From assembly GCF_000013225.1 (NCBI RefSeq), contig NC_007776.1:1-64000 (forward strand): a stretch of 64,000 nt of DNA. Reading direction: 5' to 3'. The translations under genes were made by a program, and so were the position numbers. The notes under the pieces are model-generated. The model searched no databases, had not been told where the DNA came from, and worked only from the letters and a program-made list of their open reading frames with translations. Below, one piece after another: positions 3,372 through 53,669 of the stretch; positions within the stretch are counted from its first letter, which is position 1; every line of letters starts with the position of its first letter. This stretch comes from Synechococcus sp. JA-2-3B'a(2-13). Its GTDB lineage: Bacteria > Cyanobacteriota > Cyanobacteriia > Thermostichales > Thermostichaceae.

Positions 3372-5294
3372 TTAGACCAGCTTTGGACTCCGTCCCGCTT
3401 CCGGGAATGGACTGGGTAGGCCGACCTTCTCCGGGATGGGCACATACTCTGAGACAATCGCCCGGAATTCGTCGCCATCCAGGGTTTCCCGTTCCACCAA
3501 GGTATCGGCCAATCGATCCAGCAGAGGGCGGTGCTCCAGCAAAATCTGCTTGGCTTTCTGGTAACAGCTCTCCAGGATCTGCCGCACCTGGCGGTCGATC
3601 TTGGCGGCCACATCCTCCGAGTACTCGACGCGGTTCATCCAGCCGCCGCCCAAGAATACCTCGTTGTTGGGGGGATCCAGCATCAAGGGCCCCAGCTCAG
3701 ACATGCCAAAGCGGGTCACCATCTGCCGCACCAGATTCGTGTTCTGCTGCAGGTCGTTGCTGGCTCCGGTGGTCACTTCCGAGTAGCCGAAGACGATCTC
3801 TTCGGCCGCCCGACCGCCAAAGCCCACCACCACCCGATCCAGCAGCCAAGCGCGGCTGTACATGCCGGAGTCGATCTGCTCCTCGTTGGGCAGTTGCTGG
3901 GCAAAGCCACCTGCGCCGCCGGAACGGGGGATGATGGTCACCTTGTTCAAGGGATCCGCGTGGGGCAAAAGTGTCATCAACAGGGCATGGCCACACTCGT
4001 GGTAGGCGATCAGGCGCTTGCTCTTGCCGTCCAGAAGCGGCGGCTTGGTCAGGCCGATGGTGATGCGGTCAATGGCGTCCTCAATGTCTTGGTTGGTGAT
4101 GGCCATGCGCTGACGGCGGGCCGCCAAAATGGCCGCTTCATTGAGCAGGTTGGCCAGATCCGCACCGGCAAAGCCAGGGGTACGGCGGGCAATCGCCTCT
4201 AGGCTGACCTCTTCCGCCAGCTTCTTGTTGCGGGCATGCACCCGCAAGATCTCGTAGCGCCCCTTAAAGCTAGGCCGATCCACCGTAATCTGGCGGTCGA
4301 AGCGGCCCGGACGCAAGAGAGCCGCATCCAACACATCAGGGCGGTTGGTGGCGGCAATCACGATAATGCCGGTGTTGCCCTCAAAGCCGTCCATCTCCGT
4401 GAGCAACTGGTTCAGGGTTTGCTCGCGTTCGTCGTTGCCACCGCCAATGCCGGCCCCCCGCTGCCGGCCCACCGCGTCAATCTCGTCGATGAAGACGATG
4501 CAGGGCGCATTCTCCTTGGCCTTCTTGAAGAGATCCCGTACGCGAGAGGCACCCACCCCGACAAACATTTCCACAAACTCAGAGCCGGACAGGCTAAAGA
4601 AAGGCACTCCTGCCTCGCCGGCAATGGCCTTGGCCAGAAGGGTTTTGCCCGTCCCCGGCGGCCCCACCAACAACACGCCTTTGGGGATCTTGGCCCCAAC
4701 AGCGGTGAAGCGCTCCGGCTTCTTCAAGAAGGTAACCACCTCTTGCAATTCTTCTTTGGCTTCTTCGATGCCGGCCACATCGTCGAACTTAACGCCGGTT
4801 TTGGCTTCCATCTGGAAGCGGGCCCGCGATTTGCCGAAGTTCATCGCCTGCCCAGGGCCGCCCGCTCCGCCACCGGCACGCCGCAGGAAAAAGAACAACC
4901 CCCCCAACAACAACAGCGGGATCACCAGGTTGCCCAGAAGCGCCCAAAAGGCGCTGCCATTGCGGGTGGGTACCACTGCCACTTCGATCCCCTGCTCGGT
5001 GAGGCGGTCCACCAGTTGCGGTACGGTGTTGGGCAGCAGGTTCACTCGGTAGCGGGTGGAATGCTGGGTCTGGGGATCCACAGCCGTAACTTCAGCTACC
5101 AGATTGTTGTCCGTGAGGCGCACATCCGTAACCCGCCCCTCCTCGACGTAGCGCAAAAAGCGATCGTAGGTGAGGGCCGAGGCCAAAGCTGCATGGGCGG
5201 GTGCAGGCTGCAGCACCAGGCCGGATCCCTGCCAGAGACAAAAGCCCAGCAGGAGGGCGATCAGCCAGCGCTGGGGAGATAGAGGCTTGTTCAT
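3372..5294 (-). CDS. ftsH: ATP-dependent zinc metalloprotease FtsH
   Basis: Membrane-anchored AAA+ protease; in cyanobacteria FtsH complexes degrade damaged membrane proteins, including photosystem II D1. The 640-residue protein has a first membrane segment at about 10-30, a lumenal/periplasmic part, a second membrane segment at about 117-137, Walker A GPPGTGKT at 211-218, Walker B IVFIDEID near 266, the second region of homology [20 protein letters not shown] at about 315-334, and the zinc motif HECGH at 432-436. The usual residue at the third position is Ala rather than Cys; both His and the Glu are kept. Cyanobacteria have several paralogs, so no number is assigned. Its 3' end contains a 15-base match to a short repeat found in IS elements (see 3385). 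Confidence 0.97.
3385..3399 (+). repeat. Short match to the TnpB-inserted repeat, at the ftsH 3' end
   Basis: GGACTCCGTCCCGCT occurs here (encoding ftsH residues near the C-terminal AGRSPKLV on the other strand), at 40302-40316 in an IS607 remnant, and inverted at 21390-21404 in IS607 copy 1. A 15-base exact match three times is unlikely by chance, but this copy lacks the rest of the repeat. Confidence 0.45.
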
Positions 5295-21247: not shown

Positions 21248-21293
21248 CGACAATCCTTTTGCAAATGCTTCCCCACCCACAATACTGATACAT

Positions 21294-22574
21294 TTACGCT
21301 GAACACTGCTGAGCATTACTGCTCAACGGTGAAGCGATAGCATTCTGCCCGTTTCCGTTGTCGCTACGCGACGCTAACGCGACCGCGTCAGCGGGACGGA
21401 GTCCGAACAGAAAGGCGGTATCCCGCAAAGCTCTGAGCATAACACCCAGAGCGCCTTGCCAATCTCGTGGTAGCCTATGGTTGCACTTTGGGCATCTAAA
21501 CACCTTTGCGCCACCCAACTTGGTGTGGATGTGCCCGCACTTAGTACAGGTTTTACTGGTGTACGCCTCCGATACTTCCACGACGACCACGTTTTTCTTT
21601 TTGGCTTGGAACTTCAGGAACTGCTTGAACCGATAGTGCGCCCAGGTGAGCATCGCCCCCGCCGTCTTGCTACCAAACTTCCTCCCCGCCTTGGCAACCA
21701 TCTTGGCTGACTCGAAAGTGGGGAGGAATATCAATCGGTAGTTATCCGTTAGGAACGCCGCTACCTTGCGATGGCACTCGTCCACCAAGTTCCTGATTCT
21801 CTCCCGCAGACGAAATGCCGCTTGCCGCATTCGCCTACGCTTGGGTCTCGGTGCTTTACTCAGCCTAGACTGCAGATCGTCTAGGTGGTAGCACAGCCGA
21901 ACGATTCTGCCAAAGTCTCCCTTGGCGATATCTACAAAGCCCGCCCCATCAAACCCTGTAAGGAAGCTTCTTACTCCAGGATCAAGTGCGATCACCCCCC
22001 TTGCTAACGAACACTGCTCGTTCACGGGCTCGGGGAAGATGGCATACCATCTATCTTTCACCCGCATTAGCTTAGTCCCATAGGCACACTTTTGCGGCAC
22101 CGCTTCTGACGCCGTAAACGACAAACCCTTCGTGAGCTTCGGATACCACCTGCCCTGACTGAAATTACTGTTGTTGAACTGCAAGGTGTGGGTCTTATCC
22201 CTCACACTGCGAAACCGAGCTTCCTTGCTTTGGCGAAACGCTTGCCATGCCTCCATGACGGCGTTCTGCTTAATGTGGCAGGGGGCTTCCTTCACCCACT
22301 GCGGCAAGTCCGATTGCAGGATAATATTCCGCAGCTTTTCTGGGGTTTTAGTAGTGCCATGCTGACGCTGATAGGCAATCGCTTGGTTGTAGCAGTACCG
22401 GCACGCCGCTTGCCACCGCTTCCAAACTTTAGCCAGCGCTGGCTCCGGATAAATCCGTATCTTTCTCGATTGCAGCCCGATATTTTCTGAGTCCGTAGAG
22501 CCGATTGCTGAAGCAGTGCAGGATGGCGAGGATATCCTCAACCAGTTCCTGTTGGGGAGAAAAGTGATCGTCAT
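21294..22574 (-). CDS. tnpB: TnpB RNA-guided nuclease of IS607 copy 1
   Basis: RuvC-type nuclease, ancestor group of Cas12. RuvC motifs are visible: LDPGVRSF (Asp), FLPTFESAK (Glu) and PRDWQGA (Asp). A four-Cys zinc finger (CTKCGHIHTK...FRCPKC) lies before the last motif. All catalytic positions seem present. Similarity to TnpB starts near SRKIRIYPEPALAKVWKRW; the start codon is uncertain (ATG 22574, or a later TTG near 22541), in both cases inside tnpA. It differs from copy 2 by a 16-residue insertion (LRPADAVALASRSDNG type) near the C-terminus. The 3' end of the gene should also encode the guide RNA scaffold. Confidence 0.85.
   Translation of the reverse strand: MTITFLPNRNWLRISSPSCTASAIGSTDSENIGLQSRKIRIYPEPALAKVWKRWQAACRYCYNQAIAYQRQHGTTKTPEKLRNIILQSDLPQWVKEAPCHIKQNAVMEAWQAFRQSKEARFRSVRDKTHTLQFNNSNFSQGRWYPKLTKGLSFTASEAVPQKCAYGTKLMRVKDRWYAIFPEPVNEQCSLARGVIALDPGVRSFLTGFDGAGFVDIAKGDFGRIVRLCYHLDDLQSRLSKAPRPKRRRMRQAAFRLRERIRNLVDECHRKVAAFLTDNYRLIFLPTFESAKMVAKAGRKFGSKTAGAMLTWAHYRFKQFLKFQAKKKNVVVVEVSEAYTSKTCTKCGHIHTKLGGAKVFRCPKCNHRLPRDWQGALGVMLRALRDTAFLFGLRPADAVALASRSDNGNGQNAIASPLSSNAQQCSA
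21310..21325 (-). ncRNA. Conserved hairpin in the IS607 right end (putative omega-RNA scaffold), copy 1
   Basis: TGAGCA-GTAA-TGCTCA (minus strand) near the 3' end of tnpB. The same place in the remnant at 40354 has a different sequence with the same pairing. The conserved right end continues to 21284; any guide would be read from the flank below 21284. Confidence 0.5.
21357..21404 (-). repeat. 48-base palindromic repeat inserted in frame in tnpB copy 1
   Basis: Present here and absent from copy 2, where flanking bases join directly (TTC|GGA). It begins GGACTCCGTCCCGCTGACGC and contains two small hairpins (GACGCG-GT-CGCGTTA and GTCGC-GTA-GCGAC). Being 48 bases it keeps the frame. Relatives are at 40302 (IS607 remnant) and 52906 (unrelated TnpB). 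Confidence 0.75.
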
Positions 22575-23022
22575 CGAGAACCAAGATTTCGCACCCGTAT
22601 TGGCGGCAGTACCACTCAACGAACTCAAATCCAAACCGGCAGAGTCGATCCCGGTGAGCGACCACAATTGTTCCGACATCTCCCGCACGAACTCGTTCCA
22701 ATAAGGCAAGGAACTTTGGTCTTTTGAAGTTGAGACCGCCGCCAACCTCTCCGACCACTTCGGCTCCAGGATAGAGGTTAACCAGTCTTGCAATCTGTCG
22801 CTCCAAGTCTGACTTCTGCCCTCGACTGCTGACTCGGGCATACAAAACGACTCGCTTGGCCTTTCTGGGCGCTTTGATGTAGCTGTCGAGGTCATACCTT
22901 CTCGCTCTACCAGACGGCGTACGTACTGCATTGATCCAACCTTTCTGTTCCCATCGCCTCAAAGTGTGGAGACACACCCCAAAATAATCCGCCGCCTCTC
23001 TCGGTTTCACATACCTAGCCAT
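22429..23022 (-). CDS. tnpA: IS607-family serine recombinase TnpA, copy 1
   Basis: Transposase of 197 residues. It starts with a MerR-type helix-turn-helix (MARYVKPREAADYFGVCLHTLRRWEQKGW), followed by a serine-recombinase domain: YARVSSRGQKSDLERQ (catalytic Ser in the RVSS motif), VVGEVGGGLNFKRPKFLALL and VAHRDRLCRFGFE. The order HTH-then-catalytic domain is typical of IS607. It overlaps the 5' part of tnpB in another frame, suggesting coupled translation. Near-identical to the copy at 31635. Confidence 0.95.
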   Translation of the reverse strand: MARYVKPREAADYFGVCLHTLRRWEQKGWINAVRTPSGRARRYDLDSYIKAPRKAKRVVLYARVSSRGQKSDLERQIARLVNLYPGAEVVGEVGGGLNFKRPKFLALLERVRAGDVGTIVVAHRDRLCRFGFEFVEWYCRQYGCEILVLDDDHFSPQQELVEDILAILHCFSNRLYGLRKYRAAIEKDTDLSGASAG

Positions 23023-23138
23023 ACCAAGCAGCCATACTGAACATACTGTACATTATTTTCAGTATAGTCCAGCGTATCATTGAATAGAGTCATGCTCCTG
23101 CCAGCCAAGATTCGATCTGCCGGCAAGGGATCCCTGCC

Positions 23139-28678: not shown

Positions 28679-30397
<1,719 letters not shown>

Positions 30398-30460: not shown

Positions 30461-31567
30461 ATGGGCCACCTTGTTCTCCGCCACCTCAGCAAGCGCTTCC
30501 ACAAGGGAGGGATCCCTGTCCTCAGGGATTTGTCTTTGAGTGTGGAGGCAGGGGAGATCTTCGCCCTGCTGGGGCCGTCGGGCTGCGGCAAGTCCACCAC
30601 CCTCAATCTCATCGCCGGCCTGCTGGAGCCGGATCCCTTGCCCTATCCGGGGGAAATCTGGCTGGACGGGATCCCCCTCAACCCTCTGCCGCCGGAACGG
30701 CGCGGCGTGACTTTGCTGTCCCAACACAGCCGCCTGTTTCCCCACCTGAGCGTGGGGGAGAATGTCGCTTTTGGCCTGAAAATGCGGGGCATTCCCCGGA
30801 CAGAGCGGGAGGCTGCCGCCTTGCGCATGCTGGAGCGGGTACAATTGGCCGGGTTTGCTCAGCGTCGGCCCAGTCAGCTTTCTGGCGGACAAGCGCAGCG
30901 GGTGGCCCTGGCGCGGGCTTTGGTGATTCGGCCCAAGGTGCTGCTGTTGGATGAACCTTTATCGGCCCTGGATGCCAACCTGCGCCAAGAGATGCAGGCT
31001 CTCATCCTGGAGCTGCAGGCGGAAACAGGGGTGACGACGGTGCTGGTTACCCACGATCAAGCAGAAGCCACAGCCATGGCCCAACGCATCGGCCTGATGT
31101 TTGAGGGGCAGCTACACCAGGTGGGATCCCCTGTGGAGTTCTATCAGCAGCCGCGCTCCGAGCGCATTGCCCGCTTTTTTGGCGGGGTCAATTTTTTCGA
31201 TGCGCAGGCGGAGGGTCACCAACTTCGCCTCAACGACGGGATCCTCTTGAAAAGCGACGCGCCACTCCAAGGTCAGGTGCGGCTGACGGTGCGCCCGGAA
31301 CAGGTGCAGGTGCTTCCCCAGCCGCCCGGCTTGGCCGACAATGTTTTCTTGGCCCAGGTGATGGCGGAACGCTTTGCGGGCACCCAGCGACGGCTGACCT
31401 TGCAAGCCCCTTGGGGCAGTCTGCAGGCTTGGGTGGCTCCCCACCAAGTGTTTGCGCCGGGGCAGACGGTGTGGATCCATTTGCCGCCAGAGGCTCTGTG
31501 GCCTGTGGGGGTTGGCGGGGATCCCTCACCCCCAGCCCTTTTCCCAAAGGAAGAGGGGAGAGCATGA
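30461..31567 (+). CDS. ABC transporter ATPase (PotA/YnjD-like import type)
   Basis: 368 residues from ATG 30461: Walker A LGPSGCGKST near 37, Q-loop LLSQHSRLFPHLS, signature LSGGQAQR, Walker B LLLDEPLSALD, switch His in LVTHDQ, then a C-terminal TOBE-type domain (QVRLTVRPEQVQVL). This is the ATPase of a binding-protein-dependent importer. The last about 15 residues (DPSPPALFPKEEGRA) are encoded by a dispersed repeat, and the TGA stop lies a few bases inside IS607 copy 2, so the native C-terminus has been altered. The probable binding protein (33375) is on the other side of the IS. No permease gene is seen here. Confidence 0.9.
   Translation: MGHLVLRHLSKRFHKGGIPVLRDLSLSVEAGEIFALLGPSGCGKSTTLNLIAGLLEPDPLPYPGEIWLDGIPLNPLPPERRGVTLLSQHSRLFPHLSVGENVAFGLKMRGIPRTEREAAALRMLERVQLAGFAQRRPSQLSGGQAQRVALARALVIRPKVLLLDEPLSALDANLRQEMQALILELQAETGVTTVLVTHDQAEATAMAQRIGLMFEGQLHQVGSPVEFYQQPRSERIARFFGGVNFFDAQAEGHQLRLNDGILLKSDAPLQGQVRLTVRPEQVQVLPQPPGLADNVFLAQVMAERFAGTQRRLTLQAPWGSLQAWVAPHQVFAPGQTVWIHLPPEALWPVGVGGDPSPPALFPKEEGRA
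31523..31560 (+). repeat. Dispersed C-rich/G-rich repeat, copy B
   Basis: CCCTCACCCCCAGCCC, a short A/T-containing centre, then AAGAGGGGAG. It encodes the C-terminus of the ABC ATPase and directly abuts the left end of IS607 copy 2. Confidence 0.75.
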
Positions 31568-31634
31568 CTCTAGTCAATGATATGCTGGACTATACTGGAA
31601 ATAACGTATAGTATGTTCAGCGTGGCTGCTTAGT

Positions 31635-32228
31635 ATGGCTAGGTATGTGAAACCGAGAGAAGCGGCGGACTATTTCGGGGTATGTCTCCACACTTTGAGG
31701 CGATGGGAACAGAAAGGTTGGATCAAGGCAATACGCACACCATCCGGTAGGGCGAGAAGGTATGACCTCGACAGCTACATCAAAACGCCAAGAAAAGTCA
31801 AACGAGTCGTTTTGTACGCCCGAGTCAGCAGTCGAGGGCAGAAACCAGACTTGGAGAGACAGATTGCAAGACTGGTTAACCTCTATCCTGGAGCCGAAGT
31901 GGTCGGAGAGGTTGGCGGCGGTCTCGACTTCAAAAGACCAAAGTTCCTTGCCTTATTGGAACGAGTTCGTGCGGGAGATGTCGGAACAATTGTGGTCGCT
32001 CATCGGGATCGACTCTGCCGGTTTGGATTTGAGTTCGTTGAGTGGTACTGCCGTCAATACGGCTGCGAAATCTTGGTTCTCGATGACGACCACCTTTCTC
32101 CCCAACAGGAACTGGTTGAGGATATCCTCACCATCCTGCACTGCTTCAGCAGTCGGCTCTACGGACTCAGAAAATACCGGGCTGCAATCGAGAAAGATAC
32201 GGATTTATCCGGAGCCAGCGCTGGCTAA
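31635..32228 (+). CDS. tnpA: IS607-family serine recombinase TnpA, copy 2
   Basis: 197 residues, a few substitutions from copy 1. MerR-type HTH at 1-40, serine recombinase domain with YARVSSRGQKPDLERQ and VAHRDRLCRFGFE. No disrupted motif, so it may be active. Confidence 0.95.
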   Translation: MARYVKPREAADYFGVCLHTLRRWEQKGWIKAIRTPSGRARRYDLDSYIKTPRKVKRVVLYARVSSRGQKPDLERQIARLVNLYPGAEVVGEVGGGLDFKRPKFLALLERVRAGDVGTIVVAHRDRLCRFGFEFVEWYCRQYGCEILVLDDDHLSPQQELVEDILTILHCFSSRLYGLRKYRAAIEKDTDLSGASAG

Positions 32229-33315
32229 GGTTTGGAAGCGTTGGCAAGCGGCGTGCCGGTACTGCTACAACCAAGCGATTGCCTATCAGCGTCAGCATGG
32301 TGTTCCAAGAACGGCCAGAAAGCTGCGGGACATCATCCTGCGCTCCGACCTGCCCCAGTGGGTAAAGGACGCCCCCTGCCACATCAAGCAGAACGCGGTC
32401 GTCGAGGCGTGGTTGGCGTTTCGCCGAAGCAAAGACGCGAGGTTTCGCAGTGTGCGGGACAGGTCGCATACGCTGCAATTCAACGCCGGCAACTTTCGCA
32501 ATGGGACGTGGTATCCGAAACTCACCCGAGGTTTGGCGTTCCGTGCATCCGAGGAGATGCCCAGAGAATGGGCACGTGGAACTGAGCTAATGCGGGTGAA
32601 AGACAGATGGTATGCCATCTTTCCTGAGCCCGTGAACGAGCAGTGTTCGTTAGCAAAGGGGGTGGTTGCGCTTGACCCTGGGGTAAGAAGCTTCCTTACA
32701 GGGTTTGATGGGGCAGGTTTTGTAAATATTGCCAAGGGGGACTTTGGTAGAATCGCTCGGCTGTGCTACCACCTAGACGATCTGCAATCTAGGCTGAGCA
32801 AAGCACCGAGACTCAAACGTAGGCGAATGCGGCAAGCGGCGTTTCGTCTGCGGGAGAGAATCAGGAACTTGGTGGACGAGTGCCATCGCAAGGTAGCGGC
32901 GTTCCTAACGGATAACTACCGATTGATATTCCTCCCCACTTTCGAGTCAGCCAAGATGGTTGCCAAGGCAGGGAGGAAGTTTGGTAGCAAGACAGCAAGG
33001 GCGATGCTCACCTGGGCGCACTATCGGTTCCAGCAGTTCCTGAAGTTTCAAGCCAAAAAGAAAAACGTGGTCGTCGTGGAAGTATCGGAAGCGTACACCA
33101 GCAAAACCTGTACCAAGTGCGGGCACATCCACACCAAGTTGGGTGGCGCAAAGGTGTTTAGATGCCCAAAGTGCAGCCATAGGCTACCACGAGATTGGCA
33201 AGGCGCTCTGGGTGTTATGCTCAGAGCTTTGCGGGATACCGCCTTTCTGTTCGGAAATGGACAGAATGCTATCGCTTCACCGTTGAGCAGTAATGCTCAG
33301 CAGTGTTCAGCGTAA
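32083..33315 (+). CDS. tnpB: TnpB RNA-guided nuclease of IS607 copy 2
   Basis: About 410 residues, start uncertain within tnpA (ATG 32083 taken to match copy 1). RuvC motifs LDPGVRSF, FLPTFESAK and PRDWQGA and the zinc finger CTKCGHIHTK...FRCPKC are intact. It lacks the 16-residue insertion of copy 1, reading FLFGNGQNAIASP. The region encoding about residues 80-170 differs much more from copy 1 (for example GVPRTARKLRD against GTTKTPEKLRN) than the rest, suggesting recombination with another relative. Confidence 0.85.
   Translation: MTTTFLPNRNWLRISSPSCTASAVGSTDSENTGLQSRKIRIYPEPALAKVWKRWQAACRYCYNQAIAYQRQHGVPRTARKLRDIILRSDLPQWVKDAPCHIKQNAVVEAWLAFRRSKDARFRSVRDRSHTLQFNAGNFRNGTWYPKLTRGLAFRASEEMPREWARGTELMRVKDRWYAIFPEPVNEQCSLAKGVVALDPGVRSFLTGFDGAGFVNIAKGDFGRIARLCYHLDDLQSRLSKAPRLKRRRMRQAAFRLRERIRNLVDECHRKVAAFLTDNYRLIFLPTFESAKMVAKAGRKFGSKTARAMLTWAHYRFQQFLKFQAKKKNVVVVEVSEAYTSKTCTKCGHIHTKLGGAKVFRCPKCSHRLPRDWQGALGVMLRALRDTAFLFGNGQNAIASPLSSNAQQCSA
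33284..33299 (+). ncRNA. Conserved hairpin in the IS607 right end (putative omega-RNA scaffold), copy 2
   Basis: TGAGCA-GTAA-TGCTCA, identical to copy 1, 26 bases before the element end. The flank after 33325 would supply a guide. Confidence 0.5.
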
Positions 33316-33374
33316 ATGTATCAGTTTAAGTTGAATCTGGAACCTGAAAGTTTGATGGGGATGGTGGCAAGGCT

Positions 33375-38336: not shown

Positions 38337-38531
38337 GACAAGCCCCAGTGTAGCGCCGGCAGGCGATCTTGACAGTGCGGAATAGTGCAGAGCGGGGATT
38401 TAGCACCAATCAGGGAGATGGGGTCACTCCAATTTCGGTCTCCGACCTGCTAACGCGGTGCAATCAACCTCAACTTTCTCCCAAGGATTAGAACCCACAG
38501 CGCCGCCTGCCGACAAAAATAACCATCTGTT

Positions 38532-40023: not shown

Positions 40024-40301
40024 CAAGCTTTTGGGGATCCCTTATCAATCGGGCAAAAAGCAGCATTGATCACAGCAATCTTTCGCTTGAGCGCAAGAAG
40101 AGCATGCCTCTAACCCCCAAAACCCTGAACTTTGCTGAATTTACTGAGCTTTAGGCGGTTTGGCAAAAGTCATTGAGAGGGATATAGTAGACCAAGTTTC
40201 CCCCTGATCCTTGAGTCCACCGCAACGGTTGCCGGGAAGTGAAGGGGGAAAGCGCTCGGGGGGTATTCCTCAGGGCTTTGCGGGATACCGCCTTCCTGTT
40301 T

Positions 40302-40321
40302 GGACTCCGTCCCGCTGACGC
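40302..40321 (+). repeat. Partial copy of the TnpB-inserted repeat in the IS607 remnant
   Basis: The first about 20 bases (GGACTCCGTCCCGCTGACGC) of the 48-base repeat of copy 1, at the same place in tnpB. The remnant here is 24 bases longer than copy 2, again a multiple of three. Confidence 0.65.
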
Positions 40322-40353
40322 GAACAGAGATAGGCAGGATGCGATCGCTTCTT

Positions 40354-40372
40354 TCCTGAACCATGTTCAGGA
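40354..40372 (+). ncRNA. Right-end hairpin of the IS607 remnant with compensatory changes
   Basis: TCCTGAAC-CAT-GTTCAGGA, an 8-bp perfect stem at the position where copies 1 and 2 have TGAGCA-GTAA-TGCTCA. The sequence differs on both arms while pairing is kept. Confidence 0.55.
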
Positions 40373-40596
40373 GAGTTCAGCGTGAATGTATCAGTTGTGG
40401 GGATCCGTACTCCACTATGGGTGGAGAGAAAAAGTGGGCTTGGATCCCAGTCCTAGTGGATGTAGCCGACTTGGGTGAGCGTTCCTTGACTTGGGCTTAA
40501 GTTATACCCTTGTCGCCATGGATCTTGGTGCTGTAACCCACCTGGCCAGGTGATAGAACAGGATCAAACCCAGCAGCATTTGGGAGGTTTGTTGTC

Positions 40597-51933: not shown

Positions 51934-52434
51934 ATGACTCTGTTTCAGTTTGAGCAAGATTTTGCCGACTCTCTGCGATGCATCCCCATGACCTTGCGCC
52001 TAAAGCTGGATTTGTGCGGGATCAAGCTCAAGCTCCATCAATGGGCCAAGTTTTCCTTAGAAGAGCGGCGGAAGTGTGTTGATTGGCCCTCTGAATCTCC
52101 ACAGGATCTAGAAGAACTCCGCAACCATCTGCGCCATTTGGTTCGCTCCATCTGCCACGAAGAGGCGCAAGAGATTCCCATTGATCCCCAGCCTGAATGG
52201 CAAAATCCCAACCAGATCCCAATGGCTGTCCAACAAAAAGCTCAAGACCTGGGGATCCGGCTTGCCCTCGATTTCTGGAGAAACTTGCACGATATCCAGA
52301 GATTTGCCTTGCTGAAGTTGAGCCGATCCCATCACGAAAACAAAAATTTCTTGCCCGCTCTGCGAGAGTTTGGCCTGAAGATGGCGAGGGATGGTGATTG
52401 CAGTTACTGTAAACTACCCGGCTCCGACCGCTAA
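51934..52434 (+). CDS. narM: Nitrate-reductase-associated protein NarM
   Basis: 166 residues of the NarM family, small cytoplasmic proteins encoded next to cyanobacterial narB and needed for nitrate reductase activity. Typical stretches are FQFEQDFADSLRCIPMTLRLKLDLCGIKLKLHQWAKFSLEERRKCVD and VRSICHEEAQ. The last codons (about PGSDR) and the stop lie inside a hairpin belonging to the neighbouring TnpB element, so the native C-terminus has probably been replaced. The stop overlaps the tnpB stop on the other strand. Confidence 0.88.
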   Translation: MTLFQFEQDFADSLRCIPMTLRLKLDLCGIKLKLHQWAKFSLEERRKCVDWPSESPQDLEELRNHLRHLVRSICHEEAQEIPIDPQPEWQNPNQIPMAVQQKAQDLGIRLALDFWRNLHDIQRFALLKLSRSHHENKNFLPALREFGLKMARDGDCSYCKLPGSDR

Positions 52435-52446
52435 GCGATACGGAGC
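52421..52446 (-). repeat. Right-end hairpin of the TnpB-only element, inside the narM end
   Basis: GCTCCG (52421-52426) pairs with CGGAGC (52441-52446) around 14 bases that contain both stop codons. A second hairpin, GGGCT-N6-AGCCC, follows at 52447-52462. Such hairpins mark IS200/IS605 right ends. Confidence 0.5.
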
Positions 52447-53669
52447 GGGCTTTCAGTAGCCCTGAGCCTGTTCTGCTCTACCAGAGAACAAAACAAGCCC
52501 GGACCTCTAGGCTGGTTTACGACAGCCCCCAAGAGCGCAATTACGTTTGCACCATTCAAATCCGCATCCCCTTCCCATCCACAGTGCCCACACTTGAACG
52601 ACTTACCACTGCGATAGGATTGCGCAGGGTCGGGATGGATGTGCAAACACCGGTGGCAGGTCTGCGACGTGTAGGCAGGCGGAACAAGAATCAGAGCAAC
52701 CCCCGCACGCAGAGCCTTGTATTCCAGAAACTGCCTCAGTTGGTAGAACGCCCAACTGTTGGCCCTGCGCCTTTCGGTTTTGCTGCGTGGCTGTTGATTG
52801 ACCCTTTCCCGGATCCCTGTCAGGTCTTCCAGAGCGATAGCGCTGTTGGTAGCTTTTGCCCTAGAGACAATAGCTTTGGAGATGCGATGATTGACCCACG
52901 TTTTTGCTACGCAACGCTGACGCGACTGAAAGCGTCTCTCCTTGCCAGACAGCCGTTGCAACAGTTCTCTGCATCTGCGCCGCGAACTGCGTGTGCCCTT
53001 ACTGGCTTTGCGTTGGAGTGCCGCCCTCAGCTTGGAGTAGTGGTCGCGGACTCTGTTCAACTGCTGTCCATTCCAGTTGTCCCCCTCTGACGTATGAGCA
53101 ATATCCGTCCTTCCCAAGTCCACCCCGATCACCTTGTCGGTATCTTGTTGCTTGGGTGGTTTTTTCTCTACGCAAATCTGGATGTAGTAGGAGCCATCCT
53201 TCCGCTGGACCAGGGTGGCAGATTTGGGGTTGGAACCAGCCAGCATCCCACGCTGGTAGTTGCCAATGGCCAGTTCAAAGCGTTCTCTCCCTTCCACCGT
53301 GGTCAGCGACACCGTCCAGTCTTTTTGACGGAACGAGAAGATGCGTGCGTCGTAGGTAACAAAGCCGCTCTTAAACTCCTTGACGGGACGCTTTTTCTGC
53401 TTAGCCACTTTGCGGGAACCCGCTACCCGTCTGCACACCTGTTGAGCCAAGTTACTGGACAAGCCGAACCGGGCTCGAATCTCGTAGTAGCAAAGGGATT
53501 GCAGTTTGACCGCGTTGACGATCTTCTCCGGCGTGTTCTGGTTGACCCAGTTCAAGGCTTGGCCAAAAGCCTCCATCGTCGCGTCCAATTTGGCGGCTTG
53601 CGACTGGGCTACCTTGAGCTTACAGGATATGGTCAGGACTTGGCTCATAAGTTCATTGTACTTCATCAA
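52431..53669 (-). CDS. tnpB: TnpB of an IS200/IS605-type element without TnpA
   Basis: 412 residues, unrelated in detail to the IS607 TnpB. RuvC motifs: GVDLGRTDIA (Asp), IALEDLTGIRER (Glu) and DADLNGANVI (Asp). The zinc finger is CHRCLHIHP...FKCGHC. Catalytic residues look intact. A transposase gene is absent on both sides. Between GKERRFQ and TWVNHRISK an extra segment SRQRCVAK is encoded by a short repeat (52906-52926). Its 3' end overlaps the narM stop codon, so any guide RNA would run antisense into narM. Confidence 0.9.
   Translation of the reverse strand: MMKYNELMSQVLTISCKLKVAQSQAAKLDATMEAFGQALNWVNQNTPEKIVNAVKLQSLCYYEIRARFGLSSNLAQQVCRRVAGSRKVAKQKKRPVKEFKSGFVTYDARIFSFRQKDWTVSLTTVEGRERFELAIGNYQRGMLAGSNPKSATLVQRKDGSYYIQICVEKKPPKQQDTDKVIGVDLGRTDIAHTSEGDNWNGQQLNRVRDHYSKLRAALQRKASKGTRSSRRRCRELLQRLSGKERRFQSRQRCVAKTWVNHRISKAIVSRAKATNSAIALEDLTGIRERVNQQPRSKTERRRANSWAFYQLRQFLEYKALRAGVALILVPPAYTSQTCHRCLHIHPDPAQSYRSGKSFKCGHCGWEGDADLNGANVIALLGAVVNQPRGPGLFCSLVEQNRLRATESPLRIA
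52906..52926 (+). repeat. Copy of the palindromic repeat inside the IS200/IS605 tnpB
   Basis: GCTACGCAACGCTGACGCG and two more bases match the inner part of the repeat at 21357-21404 in about 19 of 21 positions. It encodes residues SRQRCVA that interrupt an otherwise conserved TnpB segment. Confidence 0.6.

What the first reader, a model, noticed from the sequence alone, without database searches (positions are those of the whole stretch)
21357..21404. Short palindromic repeat inserted in frame in TnpB genes of two different families
A 48-base, double-hairpin repeat is present in IS607 copy 1, absent from copy 2 at a clean junction, partly present in the remnant, and its core recurs at 52906-52926 inside the unrelated IS200/IS605 TnpB, where it also preserves the frame. 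A 15-base piece is at the ftsH 3' end. This looks like a small non-autonomous repeat that spreads and inserts into mobile-element genes without breaking them.
Basis: partly seen in the sequence, partly recalled or inferred. Interest (0 to 1): 0.65.

Follow-up and report, generated by a model that had tools for sequence, protein, structure and literature searches.

The report
24-base double-hairpin repeat, inserts in-frame
A 24-base DNA module that folds into two tiny hairpins has been copied several hundred times in this hot-spring cyanobacterium, and because it is exactly eight codons long it can sit inside working genes without breaking them; it closely resembles a cyanobacterial small repeat reported in 2008, and how it moves is still unknown.

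Summary
The 48-mer at 21357-21404 is two 24-nt modules in opposite orientation, each a variable-stem hairpin (GGAC-TCC-GTCC, TCGC-TAC-GCGA and others) followed by CGC-TNNC-GCG. One sub-pattern alone occurs 305 times in the 3.05-Mb genome (reversed control 0). It is abundant in all six genomes of the genus and occurs sporadically across Cyanobacteria. Against the closest relative, the indel spectrum over 136.6 kb has 18 events of exactly 24 nt and none of 22, 23 or 25 nt. Three sites are clean gains against outgroups; no target-site duplication is seen. Stem covariation is strong. Units lie in conserved genes (aspartate kinase, trpE, ABC transporter, ftsH tail) and intergenic DNA, so mobile-element genes are not a special target. 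Copies in IS607-type miniature elements also spread by hitch-hiking. Frame preservation follows from 24 = 8 codons. New here: units in genes sit mainly in one of six frames (own genome 21/38, including a separate sample), read as RVSGTES-like peptides without stops, a sign of protein-level selection. By architecture and length this is the SDR5-type small dispersed repeat of cyanobacteria, or a close relative. The mobilising mechanism is not shown.

The parts
21357..21404 (.). 48-nt insert in IS607 copy 1 relative to copy 2: two 24-nt modules in opposite orientation
   Evidence: junction TTTCC|GAACAG in copy 2; covariance-model hits on both strands
21360..21383 (+). 24-nt module A, GTCGCTACGCGACGCTAACGCGAC (stem TCGC/GCGA + CGC-TAAC-GCG), inserted between bases 3 and 4 of module B
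   Evidence: compare the one-unit copies TTTCCATT|CGCG
21384..21404 (-). module B core, reverse complement GGACTCCGTCCCGCTGACGCG (stem GGAC/GTCC + CGC-TGAC-GCG); its remaining three bases are 21357-21359
21294..22931 (-). IS607-type TnpB ORF holding the 48-nt insert as 16 codons near its C-terminus (GLRPADAVALASRSDN), behind the conserved TnpB domain
   Evidence: PF07282; NF040570
22429..23022 (-). IS607 serine-recombinase transposase of copy 1
   Evidence: NF033518 197 bits
31560..33325 (+). IS607 copy 2, without a unit (empty site near 33252-33255)
40246..40396 (+). remnant of an IS607-type miniature element, subfamily 2
40300..40324 (+). one unit in the remnant
52902..52926 (+). unit (stem TTGC/GCAA) inside the IS200/IS605-type TnpB, read as an 8-aa insert near aa 250; absent from paralogues at genome positions 102791, 241631 and 345782
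52431..53669 (-). TnpB ORF with the unit at 52902-52926
3383..3407 (+). unit forming the 3' end of ftsH (codes the C-terminal tail)
38435..38459 (+). sixth unit in the window (stem GGTC/GACC), not in an ORF of 150 aa or more

Best explanation
The feature is a family of 24-nt small dispersed repeats of the cyanobacterial SDR5 type. Each unit is two adjacent hairpins: a stem of free sequence but conserved complementarity closing a T-C/A-C loop, then CGC-TNNC-GCG, with one or two bases on each side. A copy enters a new site as a clean 24-nt addition with no target duplication and only a weak T preference on one side (shown as a pattern; the act itself is inferred). Since 24 is eight codons, a unit inside a gene adds eight residues. 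Selection then removes harmful orientations and frames (inferred from the bias), so surviving intragenic copies sit mainly in the frame reading R-V-S-G-T-E-S. Units that land in IS607 or IS605 elements are multiplied with them; units also insert into or beside each other (48-mer, 24-nt tandems). The mobilising step is unknown. My preferred guess, held at about 0.3, is single-strand copying of the folded unit by a Y1/HUH transposase acting in trans; repair-type template copying of hairpins is nearly as likely. The stated confidence covers the nature and behaviour of the repeat, not this guess.
For: Abundance: 305 matches, control 0; 37-305 copies in all six genomes of the genus, almost none of this subtype outside it. 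Exact size: 18 indels of 24 nt, 0 of 22/23/25, in 136,611 aligned bases against the closest relative; 8-aa gaps at six positions among TnpB paralogues; MITE copies nearly identical except for the 24 nt. Polarity: 209507 and 263411 filled only in this genome, 322655 only in the relative, with outgroups empty. Structure: 64 of 78 candidates chosen without regard to the stem have perfect stems, in seven sequence types; 0 of 10,000 re-pairings reach the observed mean. Frame selection: 14/22 and, in a separate 400-kb sample, 7/16 intragenic units in one frame (6/11 at the stricter cut, p = 0.005), no stops in any. No duplication at 11 of 18 sites, 1 nt at 5. Same module across Cyanobacteria only: all 72 stretches with an exact TTGC-subtype unit among 84,980 species genomes. 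PMC4390886 states that SDR5 inserts precisely within HIP1; PMC2884548 calls SDRs about 20 bp and possibly mobile.
Against: The defining paper (Elhai 2008) is not in the library, so the SDR5 sequence could not be compared. Insertion sites here show no HIP1 and no GGGATCCC. The closest relative is a metagenome-assembled genome. Only three gains are cleanly polarised, and some presence/absence, including the IS607 MITE with TCCA at both ends, could be precise loss. The Y1 guess is weak: this genome has one intact Y1 gene and it is an IS200-type TnpA. Single units do not fold better than shuffles as DNA.
Confidence: 0.8

Rival explanations
1. Descent only: the repeat is an old part of TnpB genes, and copy 2 and other 'empty' copies lost it by deletion or gene conversion.
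For: In the IS607 MITE the 24 nt are flanked by TCCA on both sides, so a precise slippage loss is conceivable; filled and empty forms exist in both subfamilies at the same site.
Against: Exact 24-nt presence/absence in ordinary genes and intergenic DNA; three gains polarised by outgroups; six different positions in one TnpB family.
Confidence: 0.05
2. It is a REP/REPIN, spread by a REP-associated tyrosine transposase (RAYT).
For: Short palindromic units, inverted pairs (48-mer), no target duplication; units lie close to the 3' end of several Y1 genes in the genus.
Against: No RAYT here: the only intact Y1 protein fits IS200 TnpA (136 bits) and REP_Tyr_transpos only weakly (30 bits, cut-off 80). 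Many units lie inside genes, whereas REPs are extragenic; tandem same-strand arrays are commoner than inverted pairs.
Confidence: 0.07
3. Units spread by template switching or repair copying of short hairpins (no dedicated enzyme), with 24 nt set by the folded unit.
For: No target duplication, weak target preference, tandem and nested units at 23-25 nt spacing, compensated stem changes.
Against: Such events would be expected to give ragged lengths; the spectrum is exact at 24.
Confidence: 0.25
4. The units are kept because they do something (RNA processing, mRNA stability, protein linkers) rather than as selfish DNA.
For: Stem complementarity is conserved across seven stem types; one protein frame is preferred.
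Against: Positions differ between close relatives; copies share no common context; several sit in IS genes, and one ORF with five units carries a stop.
Confidence: 0.12

Closest known systems
SDR5 small dispersed repeat (Elhai et al. 2008, Genome Res 18:1484; mentioned in PMC4390886)
   Same: Cyanobacterial; about 24-nt unit (size of SDR5 from memory); precise insertion; in two other cyanobacteria here (L226, L228) near-identical modules are flanked by HIP1 (GCGATCGC) halves, as PMC4390886 states for SDR5
Rickettsia palindromic elements, RPE (reviewed in PMC2229807)
   Same: Palindromic repeat present between genes and inside conserved genes in frame, tolerated by the protein
   Different: RPEs are 105-146 bp with a long stem-loop; this is 24 bp with two small hairpins
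REP / REPIN with RAYT (PMC3116915)
   Same: Short palindromic repeats, sometimes in inverted pairs, high copy number
   Different: No RAYT found; many copies inside genes; different structure
IS607-derived MITEs of the same genome (about 285 nt)
   Same: Non-autonomous, high copy number; some carry the unit
   Different: Ten times longer, with IS607 ends; the unit has no relation to those ends

Membership tests
SDR5-type small dispersed repeats | unit of about 24 nt, dispersed in high copy number in a cyanobacterial genome | tested here: met
SDR5-type small dispersed repeats | mobility shown by filled and empty orthologous sites | tested here: met
SDR5-type small dispersed repeats | insertion between the 3rd and 4th base of HIP1 (PMC4390886) | tested here: not met
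   18 sites in this genus show no HIP1 or GGGATCCC, only a weak T on one side; this genome has almost no HIP1; a HIP1-like context is seen at L226 and L228 in other cyanobacteria
SDR5-type small dispersed repeats | sequence identity with the published SDR5 consensus | not testable with these tools
   paper not held
REP / REPIN | RAYT transposase in the genome | tested here: not met
REP / REPIN | extragenic location | tested here: not met
   in-frame units in conserved genes
REP / REPIN | conserved GTAG or CGTC tag beside the hairpin | not tested
   not looked for systematically; none is evident in the consensus
Rickettsia palindromic elements | 105-146 bp length | tested here: not met
   24 nt
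Rickettsia palindromic elements | in-frame presence in conserved genes | tested here: met
MITE | terminal inverted repeats matching an autonomous element, target-site duplication | tested here: not met
   no duplication at 11 of 18 sites, 1 nt at 5; unit unlike the ends of IS607 or IS605

The most novel reading that the evidence does not exclude
The module has been shaped to live inside proteins: its length, its stop-free main frame and its hydrophilic peptide (R-V-S-G-T-E-S, or RASGAEH, RGSGPEA for other stems) make it a selfish DNA that travels as an in-frame octapeptide, mobilised by a so far unknown enzyme or replication-linked process that adds exactly 24 nt without duplicating the target.
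Probability: 0.2. Interest if true: 0.75.

Novelty: new member of a known kind. Interest (0 to 1): 0.5.

Why it matters
Units of 24 nt are among the smallest mobile DNAs claimed, and how they move has stayed open. Here they are numerous, recent and polymorphic between well-sampled hot-spring strains; their length is exact, stems covary, and intragenic copies show protein-level selection in one frame. That makes two questions directly testable: what inserts exactly 24 nt, and how often short selfish DNA adds octapeptides to working enzymes.

Tried and rejected
Treating the 48-mer as one element: rejected, it is two opposed units. RAYT as mobiliser: no RAYT found. IS200 TnpA element ends as the source of the unit: those ends do not resemble the unit, although units sit near several tnpA 3' ends. 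Target duplication: not found. GGGATCCC, the local HIP analogue, as target: not seen at the sites. Stability of single folded units as evidence: unremarkable, so only covariation is used. Virus or plasmid carriage: no exact GGAC-type unit in viral contigs, no plasmid match to the IS607 end. Rfam: no family covers the unit in the window. Coding status rests on a home-made codon model, not a curated annotation; it is blind to atypical IS genes, which it scores as non-coding.

Full report
Setting. The window is bases 1-64000 of a single 3,046,682-bp contig. Length, GGGATCCC richness (PMC4390886) and a sister genome of 2,932,766 bp point to thermophilic Synechococcus B' and A (JA-2-3B'a and JA-3-3Ab); those two names are my inference from size. 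The closest relative, G004, matches by its contig lengths the MAG Synechococcus sp. M44_DOE_062.

What the 48-mer is. IS607 copy 1 (21284-23097) and copy 2 (31560-33325) are 91% identical over 1696 nt, and copy 2 lacks exactly the 48 nt 21357-21404. A one-unit form exists in many IS607-type miniature copies. Aligned, these give 0, 1 and 2 units, each step 24 nt: GTTTCCAAACAG; GTTTCCATT-CGCGTTAGCGGGACGGAGTCC-AAACAG; and copy 1, in which GTCGCTACGCGACGCTAACGCGAC stands between TT and CGCG. The two modules of copy 1 are the same family in opposite orientation.

Family definition. In one orientation the unit reads A-[stem4]-T(C/A)C-[stem4']-CGC-TNNC-GCG-A-N. Candidates selected without regard to the stem fall into seven perfectly paired stem types (GGAC/GTCC, GGCC/GGCC, GTGC/GCAC, TTGC/GCAA, TCGC/GCGA, GGTC/GACC, GCGC/GCGC), 64 of 78 perfect; among the 21 distinct stem combinations the mean number of pairs is 2.95 against 1.80 after re-pairing, never reached in 10,000 trials. 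The pair counts agree but come from an alignment chosen for pairing, so I rely.

Copy number. The commonest sub-pattern has 305 matches (147 and 158 on the two strands) and none for the reversed control. A covariance model gives about 95 hits at E < 0.03 in 464 kb, so several hundred per genome. All six genomes of the genus carry the sub-pattern (37 to 305 copies); outside it is nearly absent. The model finds related units in 38 of 291 genomes of the phylum, mostly in one family. Exact copies of the TTGC subtype among 84,980 species genomes fall only in Cyanobacteria (72 stretches: Anabaena, Dolichospermum, Okeania, Tychonema and others).

Mobility. Over 136,611 bases aligned to G004 the indel-length table has 18 events at 24 nt, none at 22, 23 or 25, and one at 48. 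All 18 contain or touch a unit, a few of them weakly. Where outgroups were available the unit is a clean gain: 209507 (G004 and G003 empty), 263411 (G004 and G001 empty), 322655 (own, G005 and G002 empty). There is no duplication at 11 sites and 1 nt at 5; a T precedes the insert at 11 of 18 sites (p = 0.00025), and no HIP1 or GGGATCCC is seen.

Inside genes. In the TnpB family of 52431-53669, copies in this genome differ by 8-aa inserts at six positions (aa 36, 76, 100, 150, about 250, 352). The window's insert near aa 250 is absent from the copies at 102791, 241631 and 345782. One copy carries five inserts, one of them with a stop. Units also lie in the aspartate kinase (ACT domains), an anthranilate synthase component I (near the boundary of its two domains), an acyl-CoA synthetase/GNAT fusion (two units), an ABC transporter ATPase and the FtsH tail. 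Among units whose two flanks both score as coding in one frame, 25 of 42 in own plus G004 sequence sit in the same one of six frames. After removing neighbours: 14/22 (own 464 kb, p = 1e-6), 10/21 (G004, p = 0.001), and in a separate 400-kb own-genome sample 7/16 (p = 0.01) or 6/11 at the stricter cut (p = 0.005). None contains a stop. The own and G004 sets share some orthologous sites and are not independent; the 400-kb set is separate sequence but includes a few copies of the same TnpB families. The preferred frame reads R-V-S-G-T-E-S or its stem variants. I take this as selection on the protein; an insertion bias by codon phase is hard to imagine.

Hitch-hiking. A roughly 285-nt IS607-derived MITE exists with and without the unit, otherwise 99-100% identical, each form in many copies in this genome and in G001. 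Copy number in IS elements is therefore mostly the work of the host element. At this one site loss cannot be excluded, since TCCA flanks the unit on both sides.

Mechanism. Shown: exact 24-nt gains without duplication, conserved pairing, tandem units at 24 nt (10 cases) and inverted neighbours at 23 or 25 nt (4 cases). Not shown: any enzyme. This genome has one intact Y1 transposase, an IS200-type TnpA, and no RAYT. Units cluster at the 3' side of several Y1 genes in the genus, which may be chance or tolerance. Y1 acting in trans (about 0.3) and hairpin-templated repair (about 0.25) are the leading guesses; the rest is unknown.

Known or new. PMC4390886 reports that the repeat module SDR5 inserts precisely within HIP1, and PMC2884548 describes SDRs as about 20 bp and possibly mobile. 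In L226 and L228 the module stands between HIP1 halves, which fits. I therefore file it as a new member of that kind, with the family assignment untested at sequence level because the 2008 paper is not held. The frame bias, the stem series and the exact indel peak are, as far as I could search, not described for this genus; the search covered open-licence papers only.

Noticed in passing
L099:925-1209 (genome 324925-325209) and about 35 further copies: IS607-derived MITE of about 285 nt, 99-100% identical within this genome and in G001 (JA-3-3Ab by size), although orthologous DNA of the two genomes is only about 80% identical: recent transfer or very recent amplification.
   Followed up: partly
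window 28830-29129 (-): Strong Rfam match (110 bits) to RF02514, 5' ureB sRNA, unexpected in a cyanobacterium; context not examined.
   Followed up: no
L005:1402-2706: One TnpB ORF with five separate 8-aa unit insertions, one carrying a stop: a heavily loaded pseudogene.
   Followed up: partly
L095:17090-17158 and L101:6951-7019 (genome 261090-261158, 370951-371019): Tandem arrays of one to three GGCC-type units in another TnpB between its zinc finger and last catalytic motif, with copy number differing between element copies.
   Followed up: partly
L182:1427-1474, L185:1424-1481, L190:1391-1486, L203:1424-1447: Units sit right behind the 3' end of Y1 (IS200-type) transposase genes in several genomes of the genus.
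   Followed up: partly
genome 319.4-325.3 kb (L098-L099): About 15 units within 6 kb and many 24-nt differences from the relative: a hot spot or a region under weak selection.
   Followed up: no
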